Shown here piece by piece: positions 58,861 through 63,055 of a stretch of 64,000 nucleotides of DNA. The stretch is from Desulfolutivibrio sulfoxidireducens. GTDB lineage: Bacteria > Desulfobacterota > Desulfovibrionia > Desulfovibrionales > Desulfovibrionaceae. The DNA is taken from assembly GCF_013376475.1 (NCBI RefSeq), contig NZ_CP045508.1, forward strand, positions 1,113,501 to 1,177,500, written 5' to 3'. Within the stretch, counting starts at the first letter, position 1. Each line of letters starts with the position of its first letter. The notes under the pieces are model-generated. The model made no database searches. It was not told where the DNA came from and saw only the letters and a program-made list of their open reading frames with translations. The position numbers and the translations under genes are program-made.

Positions 58861-59445
58861 GTGGCGGACGACGTCGGGACGCGCCGGTCTCCGGTCGCGC
58901 CAAACGCGCCAGACGCGCCAGTCCCGCGGGCCGCGCCGGAAACGGCAGTCGAGCCCGACATGCCGGATGCGCCCGGCACGCCGGACACGCCGGGGCTCCC
59001 CACGGACCGGGCGACCATCGCGGCCCGGGTGGCGGCCTGCGGCCTGGACTGCGGGCGGTGCCTGAGCCATCCGGCAAGCCCGATAAGCCGCCTGTCCCGG
59101 GAGCTTCTGGCGGAACTGGGGAATTTCGGGGCCAGGGCGGCGTTTTTCGCGCACATGGACCCGGTTTTCAACGACTATGCGGCCTTTGAGGCGGTGGCGA
59201 AACGGTTCGCCGGGGCCGACTGCGAGGGCTGCCGGTCCGGGCGGTGTCTCTTGGGGAACTGCGCCGTGCGGAAGTGCGTCACTACGCGCGGCGTGGATTT
59301 CTGCTTCGAGTGTCCGGAGTTTCCCTGCGACCGCACCGGGTTTCCCGAGATGCTGCATGCGAGGTGGCTGGCGAATAACCAGAGGATGCGGGAGATGGGG
59401 CTTGCGGCGTATGTGGAGTGGATGGCGGCGCAGGCGAGGTATTGA
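58861..59445 (+). CDS. Cysteine-rich DUF3795-like protein
   Basis: 194 residues from GTG, two bases after the fabI stop. The first 50 residues are low complexity (PDAPGTPDTPG and similar). The rest has CGLDCGRC, CEGCRSGRC, CAVRKC and CFECPEFPC, the pattern of DUF3795 proteins, probably metal-binding. The true start may be later, e.g. after the proline-rich part. Function unknown. Confidence 0.7.
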   Translation: MADDVGTRRSPVAPNAPDAPVPRAAPETAVEPDMPDAPGTPDTPGLPTDRATIAARVAACGLDCGRCLSHPASPISRLSRELLAELGNFGARAAFFAHMDPVFNDYAAFEAVAKRFAGADCEGCRSGRCLLGNCAVRKCVTTRGVDFCFECPEFPCDRTGFPEMLHARWLANNQRMREMGLAAYVEWMAAQARY

Positions 59446-59513
59446 CCCATGAATGCTTATTAGGTATTATTTTATAAAATTTCTTAAATAACAGGCAAGC
59501 GAAGGATTACCAG

Positions 59514-60371
59514 ATGGATCCAATCATCGAAGCCGAATACAATCGTTGGAAAAATATCATCGGCTTAGCTGATCCATATACCGGGAGACAAACGATTGGT
59601 ATCCATGAGGTACTACAAGCTCATTTTTTACTAGTTGATTTTTTCTATCGAACAGGTGAAGGATTAGGTGGAGTTGGCCCGAAAGATACAAATTTGCTGT
59701 ATTCTGCTTTAGGTCGACAATTTGTACAGTTTGGAGGAAAGCCAAAATGGATAAACAGAATTGATATTTGTGCAACTTTAATGTATGGCCTGATCAAGAA
59801 TCATCCATTTCATGACGCGAACAAAAGAACAGCATTTCTGACATCAATTTTACATCTACAAAAAATCGGCAGGACACCATCTGTTAGCCAAGTCGAATTT
59901 GAAAATTTCACTGTCGCCATATCAGACAACAAACTTTGCATTTATAGATGGTATGATTCAATCGACGCACCATCTCCAGACAAAGAGATTTTGACTATCG
60001 CATCGTTTTTAAAGAAAAACACAAGGGAAGTCGACTTAAGATCAAAATTGATAACATACAATGAACTCAATACCATTCTTAAATCTCGTGGATTAGGACT
60101 CGCTAACCCGAATGGGAACAGAATTGATTTAATGCGATATATCGATAGTGATGGTGAAACAGTCCTGGCCGTCCCAAAAAGGGTTGCACATATCGGATTT
60201 CACGGCTGGACAAGACAGGTTAGCAGCAAGGATATTAACATTGTTAGAGAAGCTTCAAAACTTGATGCACGGCACGGATTTGATTCTGGATCCTTTTATA
60301 AAGGCCTGGAAGATCCATTGAGCTTGATTCGAAAATACAGAGAGCCCCTTGAAAGGTTGGCTTTCAGATAG
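59514..60371 (+). CDS. Doc/Fic-family protein in an AT-rich segment
   Basis: 285 residues. The Fic/Doc catalytic motif is complete: HPFHDANKRTAFL (H-x-F-x-D-A-N-K-R), in the Doc subgroup spacing, with a preceding helix (INRIDICATLMYGLIKN). Doc kinases phosphorylate EF-Tu, and Fic enzymes add AMP or UMP. The C-terminal 120 residues (YNELNTILKSRG...AVPKRVAHIGFHG) form an unrecognised domain, weakly like a HicA-type fold. Base composition is far more AT-rich than all neighbours, which points to recent transfer. No antitoxin gene is seen beside it in the same strand. AAGGA lies seven bases before ATG. Confidence 0.82.
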   Translation: MDPIIEAEYNRWKNIIGLADPYTGRQTIGIHEVLQAHFLLVDFFYRTGEGLGGVGPKDTNLLYSALGRQFVQFGGKPKWINRIDICATLMYGLIKNHPFHDANKRTAFLTSILHLQKIGRTPSVSQVEFENFTVAISDNKLCIYRWYDSIDAPSPDKEILTIASFLKKNTREVDLRSKLITYNELNTILKSRGLGLANPNGNRIDLMRYIDSDGETVLAVPKRVAHIGFHGWTRQVSSKDINIVREASKLDARHGFDSGSFYKGLEDPLSLIRKYREPLERLAFR

Positions 60372-60383
60372 TCAATTCGTCTA

Positions 60384-60644
60384 CTACAGAAACACCCGGT
60401 AATCCACGCTAAACACCCCGGCCAGGCGCTTGGCCGTCTCCTTGCCGATGGGGCGGCGGCCGTTCTCCATGTCCGAGACGTGGCGGCGCGGGATGCCCGC
60501 CCGGTCGGCCAGGGTCATCTGGCTCAGGCCGTCACGGTGCCGGAAACCCTGGAGCACACGTCCCGGCGCATGTTCCGGGAACACCCGTTTCCAGCCTATC
60601 GTGTCGCCGGTGACGTTTTCGCTGGAACGTCGCAACACATCCAT
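60384..60644 (-). CDS. XRE-family helix-turn-helix protein
   Basis: 86 residues. HTH region: LQGFRHRDGLSQMTLADRAGIPRRHVSDMENGRRPIGKETAKRLAGVF, typical of XRE regulators. The gene begins four bases after the moaD stop. The ribosome site GAGGAG abuts the ATG, so the GTG two codons later may be the used start. It ends 12 bases from the end of the Doc-type gene (convergent). It might regulate the aor/moaD genes. Confidence 0.82.
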   Translation of the reverse strand: MDVLRRSSENVTGDTIGWKRVFPEHAPGRVLQGFRHRDGLSQMTLADRAGIPRRHVSDMENGRRPIGKETAKRLAGVFSVDYRVFL

Positions 60645-60648
60645 CTCC

Positions 60649-60876
60649 TCACCCTCCGCCCACGGCGGGAAAAATCCCCACCCGGCTGCCGTCGTGAAGC
60701 ACCGCGTCCAGGGCCGCCGCGACCCCGCCCACAAACACGATCTTGACCTCGGCGGCCGGGATGCCAAGGACCGCCAGCAGGTCCGAAACCGTGACCCCGT
60801 CCGGGACCTCGAAGCTGTCCGCGCCCGGTGGCGTATGTTTCGCCAATGTGGCGAAGCATTTGACCGAGATATGCAT
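60649..60876 (-). CDS. moaD: MoaD/ThiS-like sulfur carrier
   Basis: 75 residues. Beta-grasp fold (ISVKCFATLAKHTP, VSDLLAVLGI, FVGGVAAALDAVL, GSRVGIFPAVGGG) with the C-terminal Gly-Gly(-Gly) used for adenylation and thiocarboxylation. It carries sulfur for molybdopterin or tungstopterin. AGGAGG lies before the ATG. Its place after the AOR gene suggests it serves that enzyme's cofactor. Confidence 0.92.
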   Translation of the reverse strand: MHISVKCFATLAKHTPPGADSFEVPDGVTVSDLLAVLGIPAAEVKIVFVGGVAAALDAVLHDGSRVGIFPAVGGG

Positions 60877-61111
60877 GCCTGACCTCCTATCCAATGCGCG
60901 ATCAAAAGAAAAGCGGCCGGGAACCTCCCTGTGAGAGATTCCCGGCCGCCGGTTGCGGCGTCATCAGGGGCTCGGATCACGGGCTTCTTCTGTTGGCCGC
61001 CCGCCTCCAGGCAGGGCCATGGCCGGGTCAGGCCCGCCCGCCGCTACGTCCCCGTCCTCGCGTCCTCGAAATCCGGGCTCCGAATTCGAGAGGAACCGTT
61101 CACAGGCGACG
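60877..61111 (-). other. Spacer between aor and moaD
   Basis: A 235-base spacer without a gene, containing one strong terminator hairpin. The 160 bases between the aor stop and the terminator show no element I can name. Confidence 0.5.
60903..60949 (-). terminator. Terminator between aor and moaD
   Basis: On the minus strand GCGGCCGGGAA and TTCCCGGCCGC (11 perfect pairs) surround a 15-base loop, followed by TTTTCTTTT. It ends about 27 bases before the moaD start codon, so moaD-XRE depends on read-through, attenuation or a very short promoter. Confidence 0.85.
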
Positions 61112-62842
61112 CTAGGACACCTTTGCGGCCTGCAACTCCTCCGGGGTGAAGTCCCACGTGGTGTTGTGCGGGGACACCGGCTCAAAGAAAAACTCCGGCA
61201 ACTGGTCGTGTTCCTTGGTGAACCCGGCCTTGGCGTTGAAGGCCAGTTCGTCTTTTAAGGTGTTCACCCCAAGGGCCAGAAAGTCCTCGGGCGCGAACTT
61301 CACGCCGGTCACGGCCGCGATCTGGTCGCACATGACCTGCACCGCGTCAGCCGTGTCCAGCACCGCAAAGGCCACGAACAGGCAAAAACCCACCGCGTCG
61401 ATGGCCGCCGTGGCGATCTGCAGGTTCTTCGACAACTCCAACTGGCCGGCATTGGACAACGGATTCACGTCGCCGCCGCACTTCAGGATGTTCTGGCACA
61501 CGGCGTAGCCAGCCGTGTGGTCCGCGCCCATGGGAGTTGTGGCGTAGGTCACGCCCACGCCCTTGACCGCGCGCGGATCGTAGGCCGGCAGGGCCTGGCC
61601 CTTGACCTCGGCCACCCGGGTGACCCCGAAGGCCTGGCCGGCGAATTTGGCCCCGTTGCCCATGATCCGGCCAAGCGAATCGGACGGGTCGCCCACCCGG
61701 CGCAACAGCGCAAGCGCCGCCTTGCTGTCGCCCCAGGGGATGATCCCGCCGTCCATGGCCACGGCCACGGCGTTGCCCATGTCGATGGTGTCCAGGCCCA
61801 GGTCGTCGCAGGCGTGGTCCATGCGGGCGATGTCGTCGATATCGTCGATCAGGCAGTTGGCCCCGAACGCCCACACTGTCTCGTATTCCAGGCCCGAGGA
61901 CAGGTAGCCGCCCGCCTCGTCCACGAAGGTCTGGGAGCACTGGATGACGCAGCCGGGATGACAGCCCTCCTTGGGCTTGCCGCCCCGGGCGTTCATGAGC
62001 TCCACCATCTTCTCGCCGCTGATGTCGGCGGCATGCTCGAAGCGGCCGAAGCGGAAGTTCTTGGTGGGCAGGGCCCCGGCCTCGTTGATGATGTTGACCA
62101 GGATGGATGTGCCGAACCCGGGCAGGCCCTGGCCGGTCACCGGATGCTTGGCCAATATCTCCACCCAGCGCTTGTTGGCCGCCTTGAAGGCCTCCTTGTC
62201 GGCCACGGGCACGCCGGGGGCGTCGGTGTCGTTCACCACCACGGCCTTGATTTTTTTCGAACCCATGACCGCGCCAAGCCCGCCGCGCCCGGCGGCCCGG
62301 GCCGGCCGGCCCTTGGGATCGGTGAACTGCACCGAGGCGGCCATGCGGCAGGTCTCCCCGGCCGGCCCGATGAGCATGATCGCGGCCCGGGAGCCGTATT
62401 TGGCCAGAAGCTTTTCCGAGGCGGCGTAGGTGCCCAGCCCGGCCAGTTCCGGGGCCTCCACGATGCTCACGCCGCCGGCCGTGACCACGACCACCACGGG
62501 CGCGGCGTCGTCCGCGGGCTTGTCCTCGAAGACCATGGCCTGGATGCCGAGTTTGGCCATTTTCTGGGCGAAAAGCCCCCCGGAGTTGCTCTCCTTGATG
62601 CCCCCGGTCAGGGGCGACTTGGCCCCAAGCGAGATGCGGCCCGAGTTGGCGGCGGCGGTGCCGGTGAGGATGCCGCCGGCGGCCACCAGCTTGTTGGCCG
62701 CGCCCAGGGGATGGCACAGGGCCGGGACCTCGTTGAGCACGAGACGCGAGGTCAGGGCCCGGCCTCCCAGGCCCGCGTAGGCGCCCATGTCCTCGAAGGC
62801 GGACGTGCGGTTCTTGGTGTCGATGCGAAGCAGTCTGGCCAT
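61112..62842 (-). CDS. aor: Aldehyde:ferredoxin oxidoreductase (tungsten type)
   Basis: 576 residues. N-terminal domain with RIDTKN...LGGRALTSRLV, GTAAANSGRISLGAKSPLTGG; pterin and Fe-S region GCHPGCVIQC (three cysteines) with DDLGLDTIDMGNAVA; fourth cysteine near the end (GFCLFVAF). It oxidises aldehydes to acids with ferredoxin, using a tungstopterin. AGGAGG lies seven bases before ATG. Divergent from an unknown gene across a palindromic AT-rich region. Confidence 0.95.
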   Translation of the reverse strand: MARLLRIDTKNRTSAFEDMGAYAGLGGRALTSRLVLNEVPALCHPLGAANKLVAAGGILTGTAAANSGRISLGAKSPLTGGIKESNSGGLFAQKMAKLGIQAMVFEDKPADDAAPVVVVVTAGGVSIVEAPELAGLGTYAASEKLLAKYGSRAAIMLIGPAGETCRMAASVQFTDPKGRPARAAGRGGLGAVMGSKKIKAVVVNDTDAPGVPVADKEAFKAANKRWVEILAKHPVTGQGLPGFGTSILVNIINEAGALPTKNFRFGRFEHAADISGEKMVELMNARGGKPKEGCHPGCVIQCSQTFVDEAGGYLSSGLEYETVWAFGANCLIDDIDDIARMDHACDDLGLDTIDMGNAVAVAMDGGIIPWGDSKAALALLRRVGDPSDSLGRIMGNGAKFAGQAFGVTRVAEVKGQALPAYDPRAVKGVGVTYATTPMGADHTAGYAVCQNILKCGGDVNPLSNAGQLELSKNLQIATAAIDAVGFCLFVAFAVLDTADAVQVMCDQIAAVTGVKFAPEDFLALGVNTLKDELAFNAKAGFTKEHDQLPEFFFEPVSPHNTTWDFTPEELQAAKVS

Positions 62843-63055
62843 GCGTGTTCCTCCTTGCCTCCAGGCGCATTTGCAGCGCATGGTGTTCGTATGGTGTGCA
62901 GTGATGAGGGCTTATTCTTCTATGTCACATTCGACATAAGTCAATATTGATACATTTCAATGTTGACATAATGCGAATGACATGTATTGCTTTTAGCATG
63001 GTATCTTTGGAAGCAAAAGAGGTTTTCAAGGGCATTTTTTGGAGGGATAGTGGAT
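62843..63055. promoter_or_regulatory. Divergent regulatory region of aor with long imperfect palindrome
   Basis: Segments 62922-62950 and 62957-62983 form an imperfect inverted repeat (ATGTCA, TTCG, CAT, GTCAA and ATTGA blocks match in order). TCAATATTGA at 62941-62950 is itself a perfect palindrome. On the plus strand TTGACA (62963-62968) is 16 bases from TATTGC. AT-rich in contrast to its flanks. A regulator dimer pair probably binds here and controls both directions. Confidence 0.7.

What the first reader, a model, noticed from the sequence alone, without database searches (positions are those of the whole stretch)
59446..60383. AT-rich Doc-type gene inserted in a GC-rich genome, without a visible antitoxin
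The catalytic motif is complete and the gene is intact, but composition differs sharply from both flanks. It may be solitary, self-inhibited through its unusual C-terminal domain, or restrained by the convergent HTH protein.
Basis: partly seen in the sequence, partly recalled or inferred. Interest (0 to 1): 0.6.

Follow-up and report, generated by a model that had tools for sequence, protein, structure and literature searches.

The report
Solitary Doc toxin with pseudo-HicA tail
A single AT-rich gene, slotted between two ordinary genes of a GC-rich bacterium, encodes a Doc-type kinase toxin fused to a disabled relative of a second toxin (HicA), and seems to belong to a scattered family of lone toxins that travel without an antitoxin.

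Summary
The gene is 59514-60371 (+, 285 aa), inside a 942-base insert (59442-60383, GC 0.384) that two same-genus genomes lack; they have 25 bp there. Residues 25-172 are a Doc-type Fic domain with the intact HPFHDANKR motif. Residues about 176-264 have the HicA (dsRBD-like) fold, by structure and by profile comparison, but the HicA catalytic-His column is Arg here and His in 1 of 51 aligned rows. A conserved C-terminal helix pair follows. Relatives sit beside core genes (thyX, parE, uvrB, nrdB and others), in prophages, filamentous phages and plasmids. At 54 loci no small gene recurs beside them, so no antitoxin is visible. All 48 loci counted are AT-richer than their surroundings (mean 0.17); ordinary short Docs are not (0.014), nor are neighbour genes. 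The convergent HTH gene belongs to the genus background and is not a dedicated antitoxin. Best reading: a self-restrained, single-gene Doc kinase that arrests translation when released, probably as phage defence. Architecture, insertion and solitude are shown; toxicity, autoinhibition and defence are inferred.

The parts
59442..60383 (.). 942-bp AT-rich insert in place of a 25-bp spacer (terminator-like by eye) of the relatives
   Evidence: blastn borders against two same-genus genomes; GC 0.384; no repeat pairing the two ends stood out (no chance level was computed)
59442..59470 (+). promoter-like site TTGACC-17-TATTAT, overlapping the stop codon of the upstream gene
   Evidence: 10 of 12 matches, the best of 5 sites found (2.1 expected in shuffles); consensus only
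59502..59506 (+). AAGGA, probable ribosome-binding site
   Evidence: sequence
59514..60371 (+). solitary Doc-HicA-like gene, 285 aa
   Evidence: phrog_18015 over residues 28-263, E 3.9e-15
59586..60029 (+). Doc-type Fic domain, residues 25-172
   Evidence: P1 Doc 3dd7_A Z 14.2, rmsd 2.1, 121 aligned
59802..59828 (+). catalytic motif HPFHDANKR, residues 97-105; H97, F99, N103, K104, R105 invariant in 51 of 51 aligned rows
60039..60305 (+). HicA-like (dsRBD-fold) domain, residues 176-264, with Arg203 in the HicA catalytic-His column
60315..60365 (+). C-terminal helix pair, residues 268-284, candidate built-in inhibitory element
   Evidence: L282 in 51 of 51 and A283 in 48 of 51 rows
58861..59445 (+). 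upstream neighbour, DUF3795 protein; resident gene
60384..60641 (-). convergent HTH_3 protein; resident gene present in relatives without the insert

Best explanation
The gene is a horizontally acquired, solitary Doc-family protein kinase toxin fused to a catalytically dead HicA-like (dsRBD-fold) domain and a conserved C-terminal helix pair. With no antitoxin gene, the C-terminal part most likely restrains the kinase in cis, with the tail helix lying near the site where Phd or a Fic inhibitory helix binds. A trigger, most plausibly phage infection sensed directly or as RNA by the HicA-like domain, would release the kinase. The kinase would then phosphorylate EF-Tu, as P1 Doc does, and arrest translation (abortive infection). 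Shown: the insertion, its absence in sister genomes, domain identities, intact kinase motif, loss of the HicA His, absence of a recurrent partner gene at the loci examined, family-wide AT bias, patchy distribution. Inferred: toxicity, EF-Tu as target, cis-inhibition, trigger and defence role.
For: Doc fold Z 14.2. HxFx[D/N][A/G/C]NKR in 51 of 51 rows. CTD folded alone: the five best structural rows are 1whz, 6hpb, 5yrz, 6g26 and 4p78 (Z 7.4-4.9; next row 3.6); three are titled HicA or HicAB, and that 1whz and 5yrz are HicA is recalled. hhalign of the CTD profile against 19 HicA sequences gives probability 84.7 and E 6.6e-6 (one comparison) over 62 columns, while 20 column-shuffled controls reach at best 0.084. 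Tail invariance. In one search, six of eight NmFic rows align through model residue 281-285 (chain end 187-188); the other two (3sn9, 3se5) stop at 172-173. Residues 271-285 have block pLDDT 92 and 90 in the full model, whereas the last two blocks (266-285) have 53 and 70 when the domain is folded alone from a smaller alignment. No recurrent small ORF flanks the gene at 54 loci. Inter-phylum transfer: nested with Rhodospirillales rows, support 100/100. Prophage, filamentous-phage and plasmid carriers. Both host EF-Tu copies carry the GGRTVGAG loop. Precedent: solitary Fic defence protein Sofic, whose CTD controls toxicity (PMC12249575).
Against: No experiment shows toxicity. The canonical Fic inhibitory Glu motif is absent from the tail. 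In Sofic the CTD is needed for toxicity and a separate small antitoxin exists, so a CTD need not be an inhibitor; in E. faecalis Phd-Doc neutralization goes with toxin dimerization rather than occlusion of the motif (PMC13034048 abstract). Most close relatives sit beside housekeeping or unidentified genes, not in visible defence islands; an AAA/AbiEii-like neighbour (L145) and a TIR neighbour are single cases. The tail's position is read from end points of alignments, not from coordinates. The C-terminal domain folded alone has mean pLDDT only 73.5, its HicA matches are middling in Z, and a sequence search of PDB with the CTD profile found nothing significant. The CTD is basic on average (+6.4) but ranges from -1 to 15, and in P0001 the Doc part is also slightly positive (+2).
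Confidence: 0.5

Rival explanations
1. An ordinary Doc toxin whose antitoxin lies elsewhere in the genome or was lost; the CTD is a passenger.
For: Doc domain and motif are canonical; the host has another Doc-like hit (L002).
Against: The CTD is conserved in the 29 close full-length relatives, and tail residue L282 in 51 of 51 rows; no small partner gene recurs at 54 loci (weak for very short peptides).
Confidence: 0.15
2. A non-toxic, domesticated regulatory kinase, with the HicA-like domain targeting an RNA or ribosomal substrate.
For: The gene often follows another gene on the same strand (23 of 29 called upstream neighbours, 14 within 130 bp), which would give steady expression; the CTD is basic on average (+6.4).
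Against: Very patchy: the CTD profile finds 2 of 395 phylum genomes and 2 of 385 genomes of a class sample, each count including the genome the query or centre came from; broken copies exist (L087, L090, L185).
Confidence: 0.15
3. A selfish or addictive cargo gene that protects its carrier element (superinfection exclusion or post-segregational killing) rather than the host.
For: Found on prophages beside a repressor, filamentous phages and plasmids.
Against: In the window the insert holds this gene alone, and in most of the GC-rich close relatives the AT-rich stretch is about as long as the gene; one close relative (L068) does have a resolvase-like neighbour by eye.
Confidence: 0.15
4. The convergent HTH protein is the antitoxin.
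For: Adjacent and HTH_3-type; weak similarity to HigA/HipB-type antitoxin models (all below cut-off).
Against: Same position in both same-genus genomes that lack the toxin gene; convergent, not co-transcribed; no recurrent small gene beside other family members.
Confidence: 0.03

Closest known systems
Phd-Doc (P1 Doc, TIGR01550, PF02661)
   Same: Fic-fold kinase domain with HxFx[D/N][A/G]NKR; P1 Doc is the best structural match (Z 14.2)
   Different: More than twice as long, HicA-like CTD, no Phd or other antitoxin seen; P0001 scores 37.5 bits, just under the TIGR01550 cut-off of 38.65
HicA (PF07927)
   Same: CTD has the HicA fold and a significant profile match
   Different: Catalytic His column not conserved (His in 1 of 51); fused to Doc; no HicB seen; Pfam does not call HicA in P0001
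Sofic (solitary Fic anti-phage protein)
   Same: Long Fic protein with a regulatory C-terminal domain (PMC12249575, abstract and Results read)
   Different: AMPylase with a small downstream antitoxin AS1; here a kinase-type Lys in the motif and no room for a small downstream gene. The two CTDs were not compared here
phrog_18015
   Same: Full-length phage relatives of the same length class (E 3.9e-15 for P0001 over residues 28-263, 5e-175 for the Salmonella filamentous-phage-like copy)
   Different: Annotated only as unknown function; P0001 belongs to a divergent, longer subfamily (about 25-31% identity to phage members)

Membership tests
Fic/Doc (PF02661) | Fic domain above Pfam gathering score with catalytic motif | tested here: met
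   40.9 bits vs 24; motif HPFHDANKR
Doc kinase subfamily | Lys in place of the Fic Gly in the motif (meaning recalled), P1 Doc fold | tested here: met
   K104 in 51 of 51 rows; 3dd7_A Z 14.2
TIGR01550 DOC_P1 | NCBIfam score at or above 38.65 bits | tested here: not met
   37.5 bits for P0001; the four relatives scanned score 53.0-67.5
Phd-Doc TA system | Cognate antitoxin encoded next to the toxin | tested here: not met
   No room in the window; no recurrent small ORF at 54 loci
Phd-Doc TA system | Phosphorylation of EF-Tu, growth arrest | not testable with these tools
   Host EF-Tu copies carry the target loop, which only permits it
HicA toxin | HicA (dsRBD-like) fold | tested here: met
HicA toxin | Catalytic His (role recalled) | tested here: not met
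   Arg203 in P0001; His in 1 of 51 rows (column from hhalign)
Class III autoinhibited Fic | C-terminal inhibitory helix with (S/T)xxxE(G/N) (recalled) | tested here: not met
   Tail SLIRKYREPLERLAFR lacks the motif
Class III autoinhibited Fic | C-terminal helix at the inhibitory site | tested here: inconclusive
   End points of six of eight NmFic rows fit; coordinates not available
Sofic | AMPylase-type motif (Gly; recalled) and small downstream antitoxin AS1 | tested here: not met
   Lys104; 12 bp downstream

The most novel reading that the evidence does not exclude
A toxin with its antitoxin built in: an EF-Tu kinase (Doc) whose activity is gated in cis by a dead HicA fold that binds RNA, with the terminal helix pair replacing Phd, so that one gene is a complete RNA-triggered defence system. 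Its AT-rich composition would be kept by selection (for instance so that GC-rich hosts keep it quiet), since synonymous sites are saturated between relatives that are both still AT-rich.
Probability: 0.2. Interest if true: 0.8.

Novelty: new variant of a known kind. Interest (0 to 1): 0.55.

Why it matters
Doc toxins are usually described as partners of an antitoxin. A lone Doc family that fuses two toxin folds from unrelated toxin-antitoxin systems, one of them disabled, would show how a toxin-antitoxin pair can collapse into one regulated gene. It makes a clear question testable: is the dead toxin fold an in-cis antitoxin or sensor? The strong AT bias, absent from the ordinary Doc genes measured here, also offers a clean case for studying whether composition itself is maintained in mobile defence genes.

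Tried and rejected
HTH gene as antitoxin: rejected, present without the toxin gene in both sister genomes. Hidden small antitoxin: 1114 small ORFs within 450 bp of the gene at 54 loci (53 of the 59 relatives' loci plus the window; six duplicates or broken or cut copies left out) were compared; outside the gene or across its edge an ORF is shared with at most three other loci (among them ORFs antisense to thyX); the larger groups lie inside the gene, antisense, and follow its own conservation. BLAST is weak for very short peptides. Mobile-element ends: one search lists imperfect repeats near the ends (for instance 59504-59516 with 60393-60405, 85%), none pairing the insert borders; no chance level was computed. 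Flanks of relatives share no end motif visible to me. HicA nuclease activity: unlikely, His not conserved. A sequence search of PDB with the CTD profile gave nothing significant (best E 0.18); the HicA match came from fold and HicA profile comparison. Foldseek alone gave no match at E <= 0.001 in PDB for either model. The viral structure library gave two unnamed hits at about E 9e-4 and nothing clearer. A scan of viral contigs with P0001 alone confirmed no relative; the alignment query found 20 loci. PADLOC hits cover only part of the Fic domain. Papers: searches listed no report that I recognised as a Doc-HicA fusion; most papers were seen as listings only; passages were seen of PMC10440598, PMC2701414 and PMC9207808, the abstract and outline of PMC13034048, and the abstract and Results of PMC12249575. 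Most subscription papers are not in that library.

Limits: gene calls at relatives are my own rough ORF choice. ThyX, a GyrB/ParE-type protein, UvrB, AlaS, EF-Tu, M3 peptidase, ABC1, NrdB and TolB were confirmed by Pfam; choosing parE over gyrB, and the names tolA (no Pfam match), ndk, sodB, folD, ccdB and resolvase, are read from sequence by eye. Row L003 is among the 51 rows of A3, but its genome (G298) is not matched by the CTD profile at E <= 1e-5, so its C-terminal part may differ.

Full report
What is there. The window is part of a 4.16-Mb single-contig genome. A same-family genome, G298, matches in contig length (7032 bases) and in the place of the hit the public record titled Desulfovibrionaceae bacterium, so the host is in or near that family (inference). 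The gene at 59514-60371 (+) encodes 285 aa. It lies between a DUF3795 gene (58861-59445, +) and a convergent HTH_3 gene (60384-60641, -).

The insertion is real. Two same-genus genomes lack the gene (1 of 3 genomes positive, the positive being the window's own) and have the DUF3795 and HTH genes back to back. Homology ends at 59441 and resumes at 60384; the relatives have 25 bp with an inverted repeat that looks like a terminator stem by eye, the window 942 bp of GC 0.384. No repeat pairing the two borders stood out (no chance level computed). A promoter-like TTGACC-17-TATTAT at 59442-59470 and AAGGA before the start suggest own expression.

Domains. Pfam sees only Fic/DOC. An AlphaFold2 model from a 51-row alignment of window and fetched-locus proteins has mean pLDDT 90 and pTM 0.77. 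Residues 25-172 match P1 Doc (3dd7_A Z 14.2, rmsd 2.1, 121 aligned). Residues 176-264 match HicA proteins (1whz Z 7.5 over 70 of 70; 6hpb Z 6.0; 6g26 Z 5.3). Folded alone (37 rows, mean pLDDT 73.5), the C-terminal domain gives 1whz, 6hpb, 5yrz, 6g26 and 4p78 as the five best rows (Z 7.4, 6.2, 5.3, 5.3, 4.9), then a gap to 3.6. Three of these are titled HicA or HicAB; 1whz is titled 'hypothetical protein' and 5yrz 'Toxin-Antitoxin complex', and their HicA identity is recalled. As an independent check, hhalign of the CTD profile (37 rows) with HicA sequences from 19 of the 20 PF07927 loci fetched gave probability 84.7 and E 6.6e-6, for one comparison, over 62 columns; 20 column-shuffled versions gave at best 0.084. 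That alignment puts the HicA GSH histidine opposite Arg203; the column holds His in 1 of 51 rows. The domain's net charge averages +6.4 (range -1 to 15; P0001 +5); the Doc part averages -4.2 but is +2 in P0001. The kinase motif is intact: H97, F99, N103, K104 and R105 are invariant in 51 of 51. Outside the motif the invariant columns are L250 and L282, the latter in the tail helix.

Possible self-inhibition. In one search, six of the eight NmFic rows align through model residue 281-285 (chain ends 187-188), while two (3sn9, 3se5; ends 168, 167) stop at 172-173; 3se5 is titled delta8, but the output does not show what each chain contains. In NmFic the inhibitory helix lies near 182-186 (recalled, and hinted at by the mutants in the PDB titles). 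Residues 271-285 are confident in the full model (blocks 92, 90), while the last two blocks (266-285) have 53 and 70 when the domain is folded alone, as if they need the Doc domain, though the smaller alignment may share the blame. Phd binds Doc with two C-terminal helices (PMC9207808 passage), and the model's tail is two short helices (268-274, 276-284). The canonical inhibitory Glu motif is missing, so the mechanism would be Phd-like rather than the classical one. This is suggestive, not shown. In E. faecalis Phd-Doc the abstract ties neutralization to dimerization rather than to covering the motif (PMC13034048).

Relatives and solitude. A genome scan found 76 loci. Twenty-nine full-length close relatives have 33-74% identity, 25 of them from Alphaproteobacteria by record title (class recalled), plus two broken copies, L087 and L090. 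Viral contigs gave 20 loci, 12 of which match into the C-terminal domain. The tree puts the window gene with a Rhodospirillales MAG (99/97) inside a four-row clade with Inquilinus and Magnetospirillum (100/100): transfer between phyla. The family is rare in the samples: the CTD profile finds 2 of 395 phylum genomes (one is this genome) and 2 of 385 in a class sample (one is the centre genome) at E <= 1e-5. In one family sample the L079 protein has 5 of 295 at E <= 1e-20, one being its source. Comparing 1114 small ORFs near the gene at 54 loci, none recurs outside the gene beyond three other loci. Copies near the 3' ends of core genes include thyX (L079, L081, L082, L084, L086, L182), parE (L083, L085), uvrB (L070, L087), nrdB (L065), alaS (L091), EF-Tu (L076, convergent), and a broken copy inside a tol operon (L185). 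In L063 and L064 the gene sits between the same two genes (M3 peptidase and ABC1 kinase) in opposite orientations, which points to repeated insertion at one site. 23 of 29 called upstream neighbours are on the same strand, 6 are not (rough gene calls).

Composition. Long Doc genes are AT-richer than their surroundings at 48 of 48 loci counted (mean 0.172, Wilcoxon 7e-15). These are 47 of 59 relatives' loci plus the window; twelve were dropped beforehand as duplicates, broken, cut or phage/plasmid records, and those twelve point the same way in the table. The regression of gene GC on flank GC has slope 0.44. Controls: 51 of 61 short-Doc loci could be measured; 33 of 51 are lower, mean 0.014, p 0.08; of 16 in GC-rich surroundings 2 are lower by 0.1 or more, mean 0.04 (many of these loci have shorter flanks). 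Of 230 neighbour genes 7 are 0.10 or more AT-richer than the flank, against 38 of 47 Doc genes. Window and L059 proteins are 73% identical, but 71% of 75 shared fourfold sites differ and both have GC4 near 0.31. So the AT bias outlasts synonymous saturation: either the family circulates in AT-rich carriers or the bias is kept by selection. I cannot tell which.

Function. Doc phosphorylates EF-Tu at one threonine (PMC9207808 passages); both EF-Tu copies of this host carry the GGRTVGAG loop (that this loop holds the threonine is recalled). Carriers include a prophage with the gene beside a repressor (L142), filamentous phage genomes (L032, L033) and a Klebsiella plasmid with a TIR gene about 2.7 kb away. 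Sofic is the nearest described single Fic defence protein that I found; its CTD is required for toxicity and it has a small antitoxin (PMC12249575), which is a caution for my reading. I therefore commit to a self-restrained, solitary Doc kinase in phage defence at about 0.5.

Against my reading: no toxicity data; few defence neighbours among the close relatives; tail position known only from alignment end points; the CTD could be an activator as in Sofic.

Noticed in passing
L063:3507-7639 and L064:3101-7404: Related Doc-HicA genes are inserted between the same two genes (M3 peptidase and ABC1 kinase) in opposite orientations in two genera: a recurrent insertion site without visible mobile genes.
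   Followed up: partly
L079, L081, L082, L084, L086, L182 (thyX); L083, L085 (parE); L065 (nrdB); L070 and L087 (uvrB): Many copies start close after the stop of a DNA-synthesis or repair gene, on the same strand; the parE pair nests inside the thyX clade.
   Followed up: partly
L185:955-1961: A broken copy (one in-frame stop) sits inside a tol operon, between a tolA-like gene (by eye) and tolB.
   Followed up: no
L142:4494-4973, L094:4581-5069, L143:4437-4967: In viral-contig and Pseudomonas relatives a second, short gene lies directly upstream of the long Doc gene; Pfam calls it Fic in L142, the other two look alike by eye.
   Followed up: partly
L033:4732-4914: A 60-aa gene with no Pfam match lies 153 bp upstream of the long Doc gene in a Salmonella filamentous-phage-like record; possible regulator.
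   Followed up: no
59645-59797 (-): A 50-aa antisense ORF within the gene is matched in 8 other loci, probably only a shadow of the conserved sense frame.
   Followed up: partly
60652-62881 (-): A ThiS-family gene and, by its look, an aldehyde ferredoxin oxidoreductase gene lie beyond the HTH gene, a plausible resident cluster.
   Followed up: no
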